Positions 13,238 through 19,629 of a stretch of DNA of 64,000 bases are shown in pieces. Where the stretch lies: positions 437,001-501,000 of the forward strand of contig NZ_JAIWOU010000001.1 in the NCBI RefSeq assembly GCF_021295395.1, in the 5' to 3' direction. This DNA is from Komagataeibacter sp. FNDCR2. GTDB lineage: Bacteria > Pseudomonadota > Alphaproteobacteria > Acetobacterales > Acetobacteraceae. Under the pieces are notes generated by a model. It was not told where the DNA came from, did no database searches, and worked only from the letters and a program-made list of their open reading frames with translations. Each line of letters begins with the position of its first letter. Within the stretch, counting starts at the first letter, position 1. Position numbers and translations under genes: made by a program.

Positions 13238-14449
13238 ATGGCTGCTCCCCTGGACGACGCGACCCGTTCCATCATCAAGGCCTGCGTGCCCGTGCTGGAA
13301 GCGCACGGCGTTGCGATTACAACGGAAATGTACCGCCGCCTGCTGGCGAACCCGGATATCCGTGATCTGTTCAATATGTCCCATCAGAAGGATGGCGAGC
13401 AGCCGCGCGCCCTGGCGCTGGCGGTGCTGGCCTATGCCAGGCATATTGATAACCTGGCCGTTCTTGGCGGAATGGTCGAACGCATTGCTGAAAAGCATGT
13501 GGGCCTGAACATCCTGCCTGAGCATTACCCCTTTGTAGCGGAGGCGCTTCTGGGTGCGATTTCCCATGTGCTCGGGGATGCCGCGACACCGGAAATTCTG
13601 GACGCGTGGGGAAAGGCCTACTGGTTCCTGGCGCATATCCTGATCGGGCGTGAAAAGGAAATCTATCACGCACATGAGGCCGCACCGGGCGGCTGGGCCG
13701 GCTGGCGCCCGTTCCGTGTCCAGCGCCGTGTAAAGGAGAGTGAGACGGTCACGTCCTTTGAACTGGTGCCTGTCGATGGGCGTCCGGTCATGCGGCATGT
13801 GCCGGGGCAGTACCTCAGCTTCCGGCTCGATGTGCCGGTGCATGGGTCGCAACGCCGCAATTACAGCATTTCCTCCGCGCCCGATAATGGCGCCTACCGC
13901 ATCAGCGTACGGCGGATTCCCGGCGGTGTCGTATCTGAATGGCTGCATGACACGGTAGGGGAAGGGACGGAGCTACAGGTTTCCGCCCCCGCTGGTGATT
14001 TTGTGCTGGACAACCCGGCTACGCCCGCGATCGTGCTGCTGAGCGCCGGTGTGGGCCTGACGCCGCTCATGTCCATGCTGGATACGCTTATGGAACGCGA
14101 CGACGCGCCCGCCATCCATTACGTGCATGCGACACGCAGCCCCCAGACCGAGGCGTTCGGCAGGCACATCCGCAAGCTGGCGGCGAGCGGGCGGATCCGG
14201 CATGATGTTTTCTACAGTCGTGAATCCGCACCCGACACGGCGGCGGATACCGGCACGACGCAGCATGCGGGCCGTCTTTCTCCCACATGGCTCAAGGCGC
14301 AGGCACGACCGGACAGTGTCTATTACATCTGTGGGCCGGACGCCTTCATGCGTGAGATGGTGGAGGTGCTCAGGGCCGCTGGCGTACCGGATGAAGCGGT
14401 CCGCTTCGAGTTCTTCGGTTCGGCGGCGGATGCCGAACTGGCTGCCTGA
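13238..14449 (+). CDS. hmp: Flavohaemoprotein, nitric oxide dioxygenase
   Basis: The 403-residue protein has an N-terminal globin domain (residues 1-140, proximal His in AEKHVGLNI near residue 86), a FAD-binding domain with RRNYSISSAP near residue 208, and an NAD-binding domain with SAGVGLTPLMSML near residue 268 and ICGPDAFMREM near the end. It turns NO and O2 into nitrate in the cytosol. The ATG follows TAGGAG. It is divergently transcribed from nsrR, with paired NsrR operators overlapping its promoter, so it should be induced by nitric oxide. Confidence 0.95.
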   Translation: MAAPLDDATRSIIKACVPVLEAHGVAITTEMYRRLLANPDIRDLFNMSHQKDGEQPRALALAVLAYARHIDNLAVLGGMVERIAEKHVGLNILPEHYPFVAEALLGAISHVLGDAATPEILDAWGKAYWFLAHILIGREKEIYHAHEAAPGGWAGWRPFRVQRRVKESETVTSFELVPVDGRPVMRHVPGQYLSFRLDVPVHGSQRRNYSISSAPDNGAYRISVRRIPGGVVSEWLHDTVGEGTELQVSAPAGDFVLDNPATPAIVLLSAGVGLTPLMSMLDTLMERDDAPAIHYVHATRSPQTEAFGRHIRKLAASGRIRHDVFYSRESAPDTAADTGTTQHAGRLSPTWLKAQARPDSVYYICGPDAFMREMVEVLRAAGVPDEAVRFEFFGSAADAELAA

Positions 14450-14467
14450 GGCGCGCCTTATGACCGT

Positions 14468-14499
14468 GGCTTCCGGTGGATCATGATCCGCCGGAAGCC
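14468..14499 (+). terminator. Hairpin terminator after hmp
   Basis: GGCTTCCGG and CCGGAAGCC form a 9-bp stem that continues inward with a GGATC/GATCC pairing after one mismatch, 18 bases past the hmp stop. No strong T-run follows. Confidence 0.5.
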
Positions 14500-14577
14500 G
14501 CCAGCCCGCATGCACCGCATGGGGGGAAGCACCACGGCGCCTTAATCCGTGGGCACATGCATCATGACCGGGGGGCG

Positions 14578-14739
14578 TTACCAGCGGCGTCCCGGTCCAT
14601 GCCGATAGGGCCCCGGCCCGCCATAAGGGCGGTCATACCCCCCATGCCAGCCGCGATGGTGGTGATAACGTGGCCCGTAGCAGCCCGAGACGGACAGCAG
14701 GAGCGCGCAGACGACAAGTCTTGTGAAAGTCTGGTTCAT
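14578..14739 (-). CDS. Small His/Gly/Pro-rich lipoprotein (53 aa)
   Basis: The protein has a short signal peptide with a lipobox, LLSVSGC (Cys at residue 20), followed by a 33-residue tail rich in His, Gly, Tyr and Pro (YHHHRGWHGGY). It should be lipidated and anchored on the periplasmic side. A strong GGAGGCCGTC ribosome site decides the start at 14739. The His-rich tail could bind metal, and the iron uptake genes lie just beyond, but this is inference. A second 53-residue lipoprotein with almost the same ribosome-site context is at 32224-32385. Confidence 0.7.
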   Translation of the reverse strand: MNQTFTRLVVCALLLSVSGCYGPRYHHHRGWHGGYDRPYGGPGPYRHGPGRRW

Positions 14740-14844
14740 GACGGCCTCCTTGCCTGTGCGGGTGGCAACGCCGTAGCCGGGGAAAGGTTTGGGTCGCGGG
14801 GACACCTGCCAGCATGATTTGACATTGCGAACCAATCGCATTAT

Positions 14845-14863
14845 TTGGGTAGATATTACCCAA
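14845..14863. promoter_or_regulatory. Perfect palindrome at the cupredoxin/FTR1 promoter
   Basis: TTGGGTA GATAT TACCCAA is a perfect 7-5-7 inverted repeat ending ten bases before the cupredoxin start. It lies just downstream of TTGACA (14818-14823) and overlaps the likely -10 TATTTG (14842-14847), so binding would block transcription. A second palindrome, TGCGA accaa TCGCA, lies in the promoter spacer (14826-14840). Confidence 0.6.
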
Positions 14864-14873
14864 TGGATGAACC

Positions 14874-15215
14874 ATGCGAATTTCATTTCCCCAAATAATT
14901 CTTGCATCGGTGCTGGTGGCCGCATCCACAACCGCGCATGCCCTGGAACCGGTCCATCTGGAAGTGAAGGACCATCACTTCACGCCCGATCATTTCACGG
15001 TGCCGGCCGGGCAGCGGTTTATCATTGAACTGGTAAATCATGACGATACGGTCGATGAATTCGAAAGCTATGACCTGAAATTTGAAAAAATCGTTGTTCA
15101 GGGCGGGACGATTTCGGTCCATGCCGGGCCGCTGCATCCCGGCACCTATAAATTCTTTGATGATTATCACCCCGATAGTGCCACCGGCACCGTCACTGTA
15201 ACGGAAGCACCCTGA
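14874..15215 (+). CDS. Periplasmic cupredoxin-domain protein of an FTR1 iron uptake system
   Basis: This 113-residue protein has a cleavable signal peptide (residues 1-23, ending TTAHA) and a small cupredoxin-like domain with VKDHHFTPDHFTVPAG and a C-terminal PGTYKFFDDYHPDSATG. It is like the EfeO N-terminal cupredoxin domain and similar proteins that accompany FTR1 permeases, where they are thought to bind or oxidise ferrous iron. The usual Cys copper ligand is absent. The permease gene starts two bases after this stop, so the two are cotranscribed. Confidence 0.8.
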   Translation: MRISFPQIILASVLVAASTTAHALEPVHLEVKDHHFTPDHFTVPAGQRFIIELVNHDDTVDEFESYDLKFEKIVVQGGTISVHAGPLHPGTYKFFDDYHPDSATGTVTVTEAP

Positions 15216-15216
15216 T

Positions 15217-16047
15217 ATGCTGGGCAGTCTGCTGATCGTTTTCCGTGAAGTCATGGAAGCCGGATTGATCGTGGGGATCGTACTGGCGGCAACGCAGGGC
15301 ATTCCCTTTCGCGGGCGCTGGATTGCGGGTGGCATCGGGGCGGGTGTGCTGGGCGCCGGGGTTCTCGCGCTGTTTGCCGGGGCGTTGTCACAGGCGCTGT
15401 CCGGCAACGGGCAGGATGTTTTCTCGGCGGTGATCCTGTGCCTCGCAGTGGTGATGCTGAGCTGGCATATCATCTGGATGGCCCGGCATGGCCGCGAGAT
15501 GGCACGGGACATGAAGGCGGTCGGGGCCGCGGTCGCCAGTGGCAGCCGCTCGCTGTTCGCCATGGCTGTCGTCGTCGCGGTCGCCGTTCTGCGCGAAGGG
15601 ATGGAGGTGGTGCTGTTCCTTTACGGCATCGCCATTTCCAGCGGGACCGGGCCGGTGCCGATGCTGATCGGGGGTGTTCTTGGGGTTCTGGCCGGTGCGG
15701 GACTGTCCTGGGCGCTGTACCGCGGGCTGGTCGTCATTCCGTTGAACCGCCTGTTTGCCGTAACCGGCCTGCTGGTCACGTTCCTTGCGGCGGGCATGGC
15801 CAGTCAGGCCGCCGCCCTGCTGGCCAGCGACGACCTGCTGCCCGCGCTGGGCTATGACATATGGGATTCCTCGTGGCTGCTGTCGGATGGCAGCATGCTC
15901 GGTCGGGCCGCAAAGGCGCTGTTCGGTTATTCGGACCGGCCCACGGGCATCCAGCTACTGGCCTGGGCAGGCACCTGTATCGTGCTGACTGTCATGGGGC
16001 ATATGGTGCGCCACCGCCCCACCGCCAGGGTCGCTCAGTCTTCCTGA
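15217..16047 (+). CDS. FTR1-family iron permease
   Basis: This 276-residue inner-membrane protein has about seven hydrophobic segments and the two family glutamate motifs: FREVMEAGL near residue 10 and LREGMEVVL near residue 126, matching the REGLE signatures that bind iron in yeast Ftr1p and bacterial EfeU. It would import iron supplied by the cupredoxin protein encoded just upstream. There is no Dyp-type peroxidase (EfeB) in the neighbourhood, so this is a minimal two-gene system. Expression is probably governed by the palindrome at 14845-14863. Confidence 0.88.
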   Translation: MLGSLLIVFREVMEAGLIVGIVLAATQGIPFRGRWIAGGIGAGVLGAGVLALFAGALSQALSGNGQDVFSAVILCLAVVMLSWHIIWMARHGREMARDMKAVGAAVASGSRSLFAMAVVVAVAVLREGMEVVLFLYGIAISSGTGPVPMLIGGVLGVLAGAGLSWALYRGLVVIPLNRLFAVTGLLVTFLAAGMASQAAALLASDDLLPALGYDIWDSSWLLSDGSMLGRAAKALFGYSDRPTGIQLLAWAGTCIVLTVMGHMVRHRPTARVAQSS

Positions 16048-17995: not shown

Positions 17996-18052
17996 AGGGG
18001 TAACGGCAGCGGGGGCAGGAATGGCATGATACTTGCTTGAATACCGTAAATG

Positions 18053-18727
18053 ATGCCACCACACGTTCATGGACCGTGCTCCATTCTGGAACTTCTGGAA
18101 GGGGAGGAAGCAAGGCCGCTGCGGGCGGCCTTCCAGATGGTGGCGTTCGACCGGGGGCAACTGCTGACCAACCCTGATGATACGGACTACATATTCATTG
18201 TCAAAACAGGCCGCCTGCGCGCCTTCCTGCTGGCGTTCGATCGGGAACTGAGCCTCGCCTACCTGCGGCGGGGCGACATGTTCAGCACCCATACCCGGTT
18301 GCAGATGGAAGCAAGCGAGTTTACGCAGGTCTTCATGGCCCGCCGTTCCGCCATCGAGCGGATATCGGCGGATCACCCGGCACTCCAGCATGCCCTGATC
18401 CATGGTCTCGCGCGGGTTCTGGGCCAGACCATCACCCTGCTGGAGGATCTGGCCTTCCATCATGCCAGGGGGCGGATTGCCCGTTACGTGCTGCGCTGCG
18501 CGGCGCAGGCGGGTGTCGGGCCACAGCGCGGGGCGGTCGTGCCGCTGACACTGGGCATGGAGGAAATGGCCATGCTGCTGGGCACGACGCGGCAGACGGT
18601 CTCGACCGAATTCAACGCCATGATACGCGAGGGCGCGTTTTCACGCGCGGGGCGGGGGTATCTTCGCCTGGGCGAGGTCGCCCTGCTGAAGAACTGGGCC
18701 AGCGGGGAGGCGACGGAACTGAACTGA
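18053..18727 (+). CDS. cooA: CooA-like haem CO sensor, Crp/Fnr family
   Basis: The 224-residue protein has a CRP-type sensor domain, a dimer helix and a C-terminal helix-turn-helix (GTTRQTVSTEFNAMIREG). It aligns without gaps around the haem site of Rhodospirillum CooA: GDMFSTH here against GDMFCMH, so the proximal His (CooA His77) is kept at residue 80 while Cys75 is Ser78. Starting at the second of two adjacent ATGs gives MPP, matching the N-terminal Pro2 that CooA uses as the ligand displaced by CO. The flank RLRAFLLAFDRELSLAYL is also CooA-like. There is no Fnr-type cysteine cluster. It lies 57 bases past the oxygenase gene and upstream of cowN. Confidence 0.82.
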   Translation: MPPHVHGPCSILELLEGEEARPLRAAFQMVAFDRGQLLTNPDDTDYIFIVKTGRLRAFLLAFDRELSLAYLRRGDMFSTHTRLQMEASEFTQVFMARRSAIERISADHPALQHALIHGLARVLGQTITLLEDLAFHHARGRIARYVLRCAAQAGVGPQRGAVVPLTLGMEEMAMLLGTTRQTVSTEFNAMIREGAFSRAGRGYLRLGEVALLKNWASGEATELN

Positions 18728-18737
18728 CTGGCCGTTA

Positions 18738-18753
18738 TGTCGGGCATCTGACA
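18738..18753. promoter_or_regulatory. CooA-type operator upstream of cowN
   Basis: TGTCG GGCATC TGACA fits the CooA consensus TGTCR-N6-YGACA. Its centre is at 18745.5. A class II activation layout, with the centre at -41.5, would put the transcription start near 18787 and the -10 near CACATT (18775-18780), 29 bases before the cowN start codon. Confidence 0.75.
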
Positions 18754-18815
18754 GACAGCACGCGCGCGGCGTTTCACATTCCTCATCCGGCTCAGGAAAG
18801 TTAAGGTGAGTGGAG

Positions 18816-19091
18816 ATGTCCGAACAGATTGATAGATATGTCAGCTTCAGGAATGTCGAATGGGAACGCAGGACAGCCGAAGTCTTCGGCCTGCTGCAAC
18901 CGCATTTCGATACGAAGACCAGCCCGTTTTGGGAATACTTCCTGAAACAGCGCGTCATCGCCCATTATCAGGGGCTGGACGACCTGCGGGTCCTGCACAA
19001 TTTCCTGCCGACGCTGAAGGATATTCTCGAAGATCTGGACGATGACGCGGCATTGAGCAAGCTGGAGGAGCTTGAGGTTCTCTGTATGTAG
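18816..19091 (+). CDS. cowN: CowN, CO-protection protein for nitrogenase
   Basis: The 91-residue protein carries the CowN pattern: DRYVSF near the N-terminus, SPFWEYFLKQR in the middle, and LEDLDDDAALSKLEELE close to the end with a terminal CM. CowN is known from Rhodospirillum and Gluconacetobacter diazotrophicus as a small cytosolic protein that keeps nitrogenase working in the presence of carbon monoxide. The ATG at 18816 is preferred; a GTG at 18810 is in frame. It is preceded by a CooA-type box and the CooA-like gene and followed by a hairpin with a T-run. No nif gene is in the window. Confidence 0.85.
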   Translation: MSEQIDRYVSFRNVEWERRTAEVFGLLQPHFDTKTSPFWEYFLKQRVIAHYQGLDDLRVLHNFLPTLKDILEDLDDDAALSKLEELEVLCM

Positions 19092-19126
19092 GAAGCTGTT
19101 TGAATAACGAATGAATAAGAAACCAT

Positions 19127-19190
19127 AAAAGTTCCTGGATGCCGCCTTGCTTCAAAAAGGCGGCGTTTTTCCGAAGCCTTTTGAAAAAAC
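19127..19190. repeat. Dispersed double stem-loop repeat, copy 3; also cowN terminator
   Basis: After ATAAAAGTTCCTGGAT comes GCCGCCTT and AAGGCGGC (19141-19164) followed by GTTTTT, a good intrinsic terminator 49 bases after cowN. The second module, GAAGCCTTTTGAAAAAACCTTC, follows. This is the module order of copy 2 reversed. Confidence 0.65.
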
Positions 19191-19467: not shown

Positions 19468-19629
19468 TTACTTTTTCCGCCATTCCAGGTCTTCAACAGG
19501 CGGTTCGAACTTGTTCATGATGTAATCTTTTTCGTCGATTTCATCTTCCCTTTCCCCATTGAGCACGACAATCCGGTTGTCCTTGCCATCGTGGCCACGA
19601 ACGCGCCACAGACCTGTCCATTTAGACAT
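19468..19629 (-). CDS. Small conserved-looking hypothetical protein (53 aa)
   Basis: The frame encodes 53 highly charged residues, starting MSKWTGLWRVRGHDGKDNR and ending PPVEDLEWRKK. TGAGGTAAGCC precedes the ATG. It is not recognised by family. The composition, with many Asp, Glu, Lys and Trp residues and no hydrophobic segment, suggests a small soluble protein, perhaps an SH3-like or OB-like fold beginning with a GLWRVRG strand. It is convergent with cowN and stands alone. Confidence 0.55.
   Translation of the reverse strand: MSKWTGLWRVRGHDGKDNRIVVLNGEREDEIDEKDYIMNKFEPPVEDLEWRKK

What the first reader, a model, noticed from the sequence alone, without database searches (positions are those of the whole stretch)
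18053..19091. Compact CO-sensing unit: CooA-like regulator, CooA box and cowN
The regulator at 18053 keeps the CooA haem His (residue 80), the N-terminal MPP that supplies the CO-displaced ligand, and a CooA-like recognition helix, and its neighbour is CowN, the protein that protects nitrogenase from CO. In Rhodospirillum the CowN response is CO- and CooA-linked, so regulator and target are here side by side in an acetic acid bacterium. No nif or CO dehydrogenase gene is in the window.
Basis: partly seen in the sequence, partly recalled or inferred. Interest (0 to 1): 0.85.

Follow-up and report, generated by a model that had tools for sequence, protein, structure and literature searches.

The report
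CooA–cowN carbon monoxide alarm for nitrogenase
A nitrogen-fixing acetic acid bacterium carries a gene for a likely haem-based carbon monoxide sensor right beside the gene it probably switches on, which helps the nitrogen-fixing enzyme to work despite carbon monoxide; the pair is real, but the same pair is already described in a close relative.

Summary
The protein at 18053-18727 groups with the CooA proteins of R. rubrum and Carboxydothermus (100/100 against three Crp-type outgroups) and keeps haem His80. The gene at 18816-19091 passes the CowN model (94 against a cut-off of 48 bits). A CooA box lies between them at 18738-18753. The genome has a nif cluster with nifA and rpoN about 0.93 Mb away. 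No CO dehydrogenase was found. The arrangement is already published for Gluconacetobacter diazotrophicus, with cowN induced under nitrogen fixation and further by CO (PMC8047169): a new member of a known kind.

Additions: (1) cooA has a sigma-54 promoter at fixed distance from the conserved start codon in six acetic acid bacteria, predicting a 5-nt leader. (2) The cowN promoter is box + 21 bp + a -10-like hexamer; an extended site occurs once in this genome and upstream of cowN in 8 of 8 CooA genomes searched. (3) The "overlapping NifA site" reported for G. diazotrophicus follows automatically from the CooA consensus; no sigma-54 core follows it here. Best model: an AND gate, sigma-54 → cooA, then CooA·CO → cowN.

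The parts
18022..18037 (+). sigma-54 (-24/-12) promoter TGGCATGATACTTGCT of cooA
   Evidence: only exact match in the window (1 match in 60 first-order Markov sequences of 64 kb; with one mismatch 2 against 2.39 expected, so not significant at that setting); GG and GC at the same distance from the start codon in 6 of 6 acetic acid bacteria
18048..18052 (+). predicted 5-nt leader of cooA (transcript start about 18048)
   Evidence: inference from -24/-12 spacing; no Shine-Dalgarno-like stretch at usable distance, by eye; not measured
18053..18727 (+). cooA: CO-sensing Crp/Fnr-type regulator, 224 aa, haem His80, Ser78 at the place of R. rubrum Cys75
18738..18753 (+). CooA box TGTCGGGCATCTGACA, 10 bp after the cooA stop codon
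   Evidence: fits the published consensus; TGTC-N8-GACA upstream of cowN in 11 of 11 loci next to cooA and 0 of 7 from genomes without a found CooA
18775..18780 (+). -10-like hexamer CACATT, 21 bp after the box
   Evidence: at this spacing: CAYAYT in 7 of 11 loci, TATACT in G784, TAGGAC in two, TAGGGT in one
18816..19091 (+). cowN, 91 aa, protein that sustains nitrogenase under CO
   Evidence: NF033689 94.1 bits against cut-off 48; PF20543 71.1 against 27
19137..19168 (+). likely intrinsic terminator after cowN (hairpin with T run)
   Evidence: RNA fold of 19095-19175

Best explanation
This is a CooA-cowN unit that protects the cell's molybdenum nitrogenase from carbon monoxide. Proposed working: (1) under nitrogen limitation, RNA polymerase with sigma-54 and an enhancer-binding activator, most likely NifA, transcribes cooA from 18022-18037, the transcript starting about five bases before the start codon; (2) CooA binds haem through His80 and probably its N-terminal amine; (3) CO displaces the N-terminal ligand and CooA binds the box at 18738-18753; (4) it recruits ordinary sigma-70 polymerase from a class II position (box centre about -41.5) and turns on cowN; (5) CowN protects nitrogenase. 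The cowN promoter is the only place in this genome with the extended site. As no obvious terminator separates the genes, read-through from the cooA promoter could give CO-independent basal cowN expression, as seen in a relative. Shown here: gene identities, clade, box, promoter layouts and their conservation, co-occurrence with nif. Inferred: every binding and transcription step.
For: CooA identity: PDB matches, clade 100/100, fold, His80 and the shorter loop after it in all nine CooA-side rows but none of three outgroups. CowN. nifH, D, K, E, N, V, B, nifA and rpoN over their cut-offs in the same genome. cowN in 10 of 397 family genomes, all 10 among the 19 of 397 with nifH over the cut-off. 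CooA in 7 of those 19, and all 7 have cowN. Box upstream of cowN in 11 of 11 loci with CooA and 0 of 7 without. Extended pattern once in this genome and upstream of cowN in 8 of 8 CooA genomes; reversed-pattern control 0 in all eight. Sigma-54 element. Published for G. diazotrophicus: cowN up 30-fold in nitrogen fixation, more with CO, no CO effect with ammonium, as the two-step gate predicts.
Against: No exact NifA site (TGT-N10-ACA) lies in the 260 bp upstream of cooA in any of the six species, so the activator is unproven. The strict sigma-54 element was not found within 200 bp upstream of four more distant CooA genes (G143, G123, G337, G784), and in G143 a CooA-type box lies there instead, so the sigma-54 step may hold only for the six-species group. 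Identity to the solved CooA proteins is only 32-35%, so CO specificity is not assured. R. rubrum Cys75 is Ser here. G367, same genus, has nifH but neither cowN nor CooA; 3 of 10 cowN genomes in the family sample lack CooA; 9 of 19 nifH genomes lack cowN, so the unit is not needed for nitrogen fixation as such. The hexamer is a weak -10 in most species. Four of the thirteen extended-pattern hits besides one per genome at cowN lie elsewhere (in G215, G247, G143 and, twice, G324: five in all).
Confidence: 0.85

Rival explanations
1. The site at 18738-18753 is also, or mainly, a NifA upstream activator sequence, so that NifA acts directly on cowN, as suggested for G. diazotrophicus.
For: The site fits TGT-N10-ACA and the paper proposes interplay. 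cowN rises 30-fold in nitrogen fixation without added CO. Three loci (G. diazotrophicus, G247, G143) have a loose YGG-N10-GC match overlapping the box, and G143 has a further GG-N10-GC between box and cowN.
Against: Any TGTC-N8-GACA site is automatically a TGT-N10-ACA site, so the overlap carries no information. 8 of 11 loci, this window among them, have no YGG-N10-GC from 10 bp before the box to the cowN coding start. None of the seven cowN loci from genomes without a found CooA has TGT-N10-ACA in about 360 bases upstream; three of those genomes have nifH.
Confidence: 0.12
2. The regulator senses something other than CO, for example NO or redox state, although it is CooA-like.
For: Only 32-35% identity to solved CooA proteins; Ser instead of Cys75; a flavohaemoprotein gene lies 3.6 kb upstream.
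Against: CooA clade with full support, His80, CooA-type loop and box, and a neighbour that protects from CO.
Confidence: 0.08
3. The pair is a relic with no present function.
For: cowN is absent from 12 of 14 sampled genomes of the genus; CooA was sought in only three of these, the nifH-bearing ones, and is in two.
Against: Both frames are intact, the promoters are conserved over six species, and nif genes are present.
Confidence: 0.04

Closest known systems
Gluconacetobacter diazotrophicus algH-cooA-cowN (PMC8047169; passages and section 5 seen)
   Same: cooA followed by cowN, CooA 80% identical, box in the same place, sigma-54 element at the same distance from the start codon
   Different: a 2-oxoglutarate oxygenase gene instead of algH precedes cooA here; N-terminus MPP instead of MSA
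Rubrivivax gelatinosus cooA-cowN (PMC4257681; passages seen)
   Different: strain CBS also oxidises CO, with RcoM as the putative regulator of those genes; CO oxidation genes were not found in the present genome
Rhodobacter capsulatus cooA-cowN (Hoffmann 2014; not held; title seen in a reference list and two statements seen second-hand in PMC8047169, the rest recalled)
   Same: cowN responds to CO and nitrogen status; from recall NifA controls cooA and CooA controls cowN
   Different: from recall the genes lie by nifHDK and the species has a second, iron-only nitrogenase; here the unit is 0.93 Mb from nif
Rhodospirillum rubrum CooA (PDB 1ft9)
   Same: fold, haem His, recognition helix
   Different: 35% identical; Cys75 is Ser here; it controls CO oxidation genes, which were not found here

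Membership tests
CooA | groups with known CooA proteins in a Crp/Fnr tree | tested here: met
   100/100 against three Crp-type outgroups, 12 rows; a first tree of 15 rows, with a long Fnr branch and a GAF-fused domain, gave 90/93 for the wider set and did not make the labelled CooA rows one group
CooA | proximal haem His (R. rubrum His77) | tested here: met
   His80 in the aligned column; Ile or Leu in the three outgroups
CooA | N-terminal residue reaching the haem as second ligand | tested here: inconclusive
   MPP in five of six acetic acid bacteria, MSA in the sixth; residues 1-7 of the model have pLDDT under 50
CooA | Cys75, ferric-state ligand of R. rubrum | tested here: not met
   Ser78 in all eight rows of A1; Cys in both solved CooA proteins. 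From recall it is missing in other accepted CooA proteins, so not treated as defining
CooA | haem binding and CO-dependent DNA binding | not testable with these tools
   needs purified protein
CowN | passes the curated CowN models | tested here: met
   94.1 against 48 bits, 71.1 against 27
CowN | occurs with nitrogenase | tested here: met
   all 10 cowN genomes in the 397 of the family sample have nifH over the cut-off
CowN | sustains nitrogenase under CO | not testable with these tools
   shown for the G. diazotrophicus protein (PMC8047169, abstract part and passages)

The most novel reading that the evidence does not exclude
cooA in acetic acid bacteria is made from a nearly leaderless sigma-54 transcript: the -24/-12 promoter is locked at a fixed distance from the start codon, leaving about five bases of leader. 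This would couple sigma-54 control to leaderless translation for a sensor whose first residue is itself the signal-sensing haem ligand; and with only cowN carrying the extended CooA site in this genome, the sensor would be a dedicated one-target CO alarm.
Probability: 0.4. Interest if true: 0.45.

Novelty: new member of a known kind. Interest (0 to 1): 0.3.

Why it matters
It extends CO protection of nitrogenase to another acetic acid bacterium and gives a precise promoter layout that separates the two inputs: sigma-54 on cooA, CooA on cowN. It questions an inference in print, since the CooA consensus contains the NifA consensus and the reported overlap is no evidence by itself for direct NifA control. 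It also offers a small, apparently dedicated CO sensor-promoter pair, and a clean case for testing sigma-54-driven near-leaderless translation.

Tried and rejected
A wider CooA regulon: six exact boxes in the genome, this one included, against 1 for the reversed pattern. Those at C1:430041, 488989 and 685133 fall inside long frames; 303650 lies upstream of a frame that looks like a TonB-type receptor (by eye); 1401389 lies about 300 bp upstream of a protoglobin chemotaxis protein. Only the cowN site carries the extended pattern. That pattern gave 13 hits in 8 genomes: 8 at cowN and 5 elsewhere. One identical 39-base sequence accounts for hits in G215, G247 and G324, with G324's further hit overlapping it on the other strand; it looks like part of an insertion sequence (by eye). 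The fifth, in G143, lies in GC-rich DNA. I set these five aside as not CooA promoters without a test.

CO dehydrogenase: nickel type absent (the control genomes ring in 5 of 14, 2 over the cut-off). The three molybdenum hydroxylases found by PF02738 are a xanthine dehydrogenase and two others, far below the CO dehydrogenase cut-offs.

NifA site upstream of cooA: no exact one in six species; own and K. melaceti have a one-mismatch match at nearly the same place in the oxygenase gene, the others elsewhere or none. Sigma-54 element in four more distant CooA genes: no strict match within 200 bp.

Trees: one search was poorly resolved. For one search I dropped 4 of its 15 rows (L007 and L009, near copies; the own-genome Fnr-like row L052; the GAF-fused domain L064) and added GlxR, giving 12. 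L064 is thus not placed by the second tree, and G784 L061 was labelled CooA-side there though unlabelled in the first.

My first expression for cowN upstream regions caught only 3 of 11 loci; it was replaced. L051 (G438), missed, was scanned. The CooA profile search of the phylum scored at most seven candidates a genome, so its 2 of 398 may be low. The G507 hit (5.9e-16) was not counted as CooA because it groups with the outgroups.

Papers: Kerby and Roberts 2011 and Hoffmann 2014 are not held. PMC6925177 mentions neither CooA nor CowN. Searching cowN, Komagataeibacter, Acetobacter and nitrogen fixation gave 24 papers, 12 listed, none of the listed with both cowN and Komagataeibacter. On leaderless sigma-54 transcripts I saw one search listing (10 of 28 shown) and passages of PMC4842269; this does not show that none is in print.

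Full report
What is there. The window lies in an assembly of 3.29 Mb in 5 contigs. Its CooA is closest to that of Komagataeibacter melaceti among the loci fetched (83-84% identical). At 18053-18727 lies a Crp/Fnr-type regulator of 224 aa and at 18816-19091 a 91-aa CowN. Of the neighbouring start codons at 18050 and 18053 only the second is kept in all six acetic acid bacteria compared; A. lambici and G. diazotrophicus lack the first.

Is the regulator CooA? Its best solved relatives by sequence are CooA of R. rubrum (1.2e-32) and of Carboxydothermus (1.2e-30); the best chain that is not CooA has 1.7e-11. With a profile of eight relatives the gap is 176 and 174 against 73 bits. In a tree of 12 rows the nine CooA-side rows, both solved proteins among them, are separated from GlxR and two Crp-type outgroups with 100/100. 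An earlier tree of 15 rows was weaker: the 12-row side had 90/93, and the labelled CooA rows did not form one group because L061 and a GAF-fused domain fell among them. His80 aligns with the haem His of all nine CooA-side rows, the outgroups having Ile or Leu, and the loop after it is shorter than in the outgroups. R. rubrum Cys75 is Ser here and in all eight rows of A1. An AlphaFold model (mean pLDDT 86; residues 1-7 and 221-224 under 50) has CooA entries as its four best Foldseek hits by E-value; by TM-score 2hkx is best at 0.84, while 2fmy and 1ft9 give 0.51-0.53 with large rmsd and several cAMP-bound Crp structures give 0.70-0.77. I take this for domain movement between on and off states, which is inference. 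Haem binding is untested.

Nitrogen fixation. The genome has nifH and nifD, K, E, N, V, B, nifA and rpoN over their curated cut-offs, about 0.93 Mb from this locus. In 397 genomes of the family, cowN is in 10 and nifH over the cut-off in 19, and all 10 cowN genomes are among the 19 (Fisher p 4e-15, which ignores relatedness). Nine nifH genomes have no cowN. Of the 14 genomes of the genus in that sample 3 have nifH and 2 have cowN; G367 has nifH without cowN or CooA. CooA was found in 7 of the 19 nifH genomes and each of the 7 has cowN; G076, G258 and G395 have cowN without a found CooA. In the class cowN is in 5 of 385 genomes, and in the phylum a CooA-type match below 1e-25 in 2 of 398, both next to cowN. 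No nickel CO dehydrogenase was found, and none of three molybdenum hydroxylases reaches a CO dehydrogenase cut-off. CO oxidation is thus an unlikely target.

The pair travels as a unit. AraC-type and 2-oxoglutarate oxygenase genes lie upstream here and, by eye, in K. melaceti; other genes are upstream in G. diazotrophicus, A. lambici and the Acetobacter MAG (by eye); G123 and G337 have the two genes divergent. What stays is cooA with cowN.

The cowN promoter. A box fitting the published consensus lies 10 bp after the cooA stop codon. Of 11 cowN loci next to a CooA gene (10 from the family and G784 from elsewhere in the phylum) all 11 have TGTC-N8-GACA upstream of cowN; of 7 cowN loci from genomes without a found CooA none has it. 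Several of the 11 are close relatives, so the Fisher p of 3e-5 is too favourable. The hexamer 21 bp after the box is CACACT, CACATT or CATACT in seven, TATACT in G784, TAGGAC in two and TAGGGT in G143. This spacing puts the box centre at about -41.5, the class II position of Crp-type activators (established knowledge). The extended pattern TGTC-N8-GACAGAC-N18-YA occurs once in this genome and upstream of cowN in 8 of 8 CooA genomes searched; the reversed pattern occurs in none; five further hits lie elsewhere in four of the other genomes. The pattern was drawn from most of these same sites, so its presence at cowN is no independent test; its rarity elsewhere is.

NifA at cowN? The G. diazotrophicus paper reads the same place as an overlapping NifA site and infers interplay (passage). 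Since TGTC-N8-GACA is by construction TGT-N10-ACA, the overlap proves nothing. 8 of 11 loci, this window among them, have no YGG-N10-GC between the box region and cowN; G. diazotrophicus, G247 and G143 have a loose match overlapping the box. None of the seven cowN loci without CooA has TGT-N10-ACA in about 360 bases upstream. I conclude that the site belongs to CooA.

The cooA promoter. TGGCATGATACTTGCT at 18022-18037 is the only exact match to the sigma-54 pattern in the window; one exact match arose in 60 Markov sequences of the same length, though with one mismatch allowed the count, 2, is no more than the 2.39 expected. The GG and GC stand at the same distance from the conserved start codon in all six acetic acid bacteria, while much of the sequence between has diverged. 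The predicted transcript start is about 18048, five bases before the start codon, and no Shine-Dalgarno-like stretch is in reach (by eye). This suggests a near-leaderless transcript; it is a prediction. No exact NifA site lies in 260 bp upstream in any of the six, so the activator is open. Four more distant CooA genes show no strict sigma-54 element; G143 has a CooA-type box upstream of cooA itself, 59 bases before its first possible start. The paper already suggests RpoN dependence of cooA in G. diazotrophicus.

Mechanism. Nitrogen limitation makes CooA through sigma-54; CO activates CooA; CooA turns on cowN. This AND gate predicts no CO effect in ammonium, as measured in G. diazotrophicus (section 5). 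The 30-fold rise without added CO may come from read-through from the cooA promoter, as no run of four T lies between the genes, or from endogenous CO or another role, as the authors suggest.

Verdict. Observation confirmed, interpretation supported, novelty low because the same pair in the same order is published in a close relative. The additions are the promoter anatomy, the single extended site in the genome, the point about NifA, and the near-leaderless prediction.

Noticed in passing
L064:1480-3264 (G143, minus strand): A 594-aa protein joins a GAF domain to a CooA-like sensor and Crp-type helix-turn-helix, beside a gene that looks hypB-like by eye (hydrogenase maturation); possibly a gas or haem sensor with a second input domain.
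   Followed up: partly
L043, about 59 bases before 6749 (G143): A CooA-type box also lies upstream of cooA itself in G143, which would suit autoregulation instead of the sigma-54 control seen in the acetic acid bacteria of the window's group.
   Followed up: partly
window 13238-16047: Flavohaemoprotein (NO dioxygenase), cupredoxin and FTR1/EfeU-like iron permease genes in a row on the same strand, upstream of the CooA unit.
   Followed up: partly
window 19468-19629 (minus strand): A 53-aa frame downstream of cowN is kept nearly unchanged in K. melaceti but a motif search did not find it in the other four named loci.
   Followed up: partly
L028:10704-12371 and C1:1401389-1401404: A protoglobin chemotaxis receptor near the nif cluster with an exact CooA-box-like site about 300 bp upstream, without the extended promoter layout.
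   Followed up: partly
G367 (same genus; L047): Has nifH and, by eye, nifDK, but neither cowN nor CooA, so close relatives differ in CO protection of nitrogenase.
   Followed up: no
L017, L019, L020, L048-L051: Seven cowN loci in genomes where no CooA was found; what controls cowN there (for example RcoM) was not examined.
   Followed up: no
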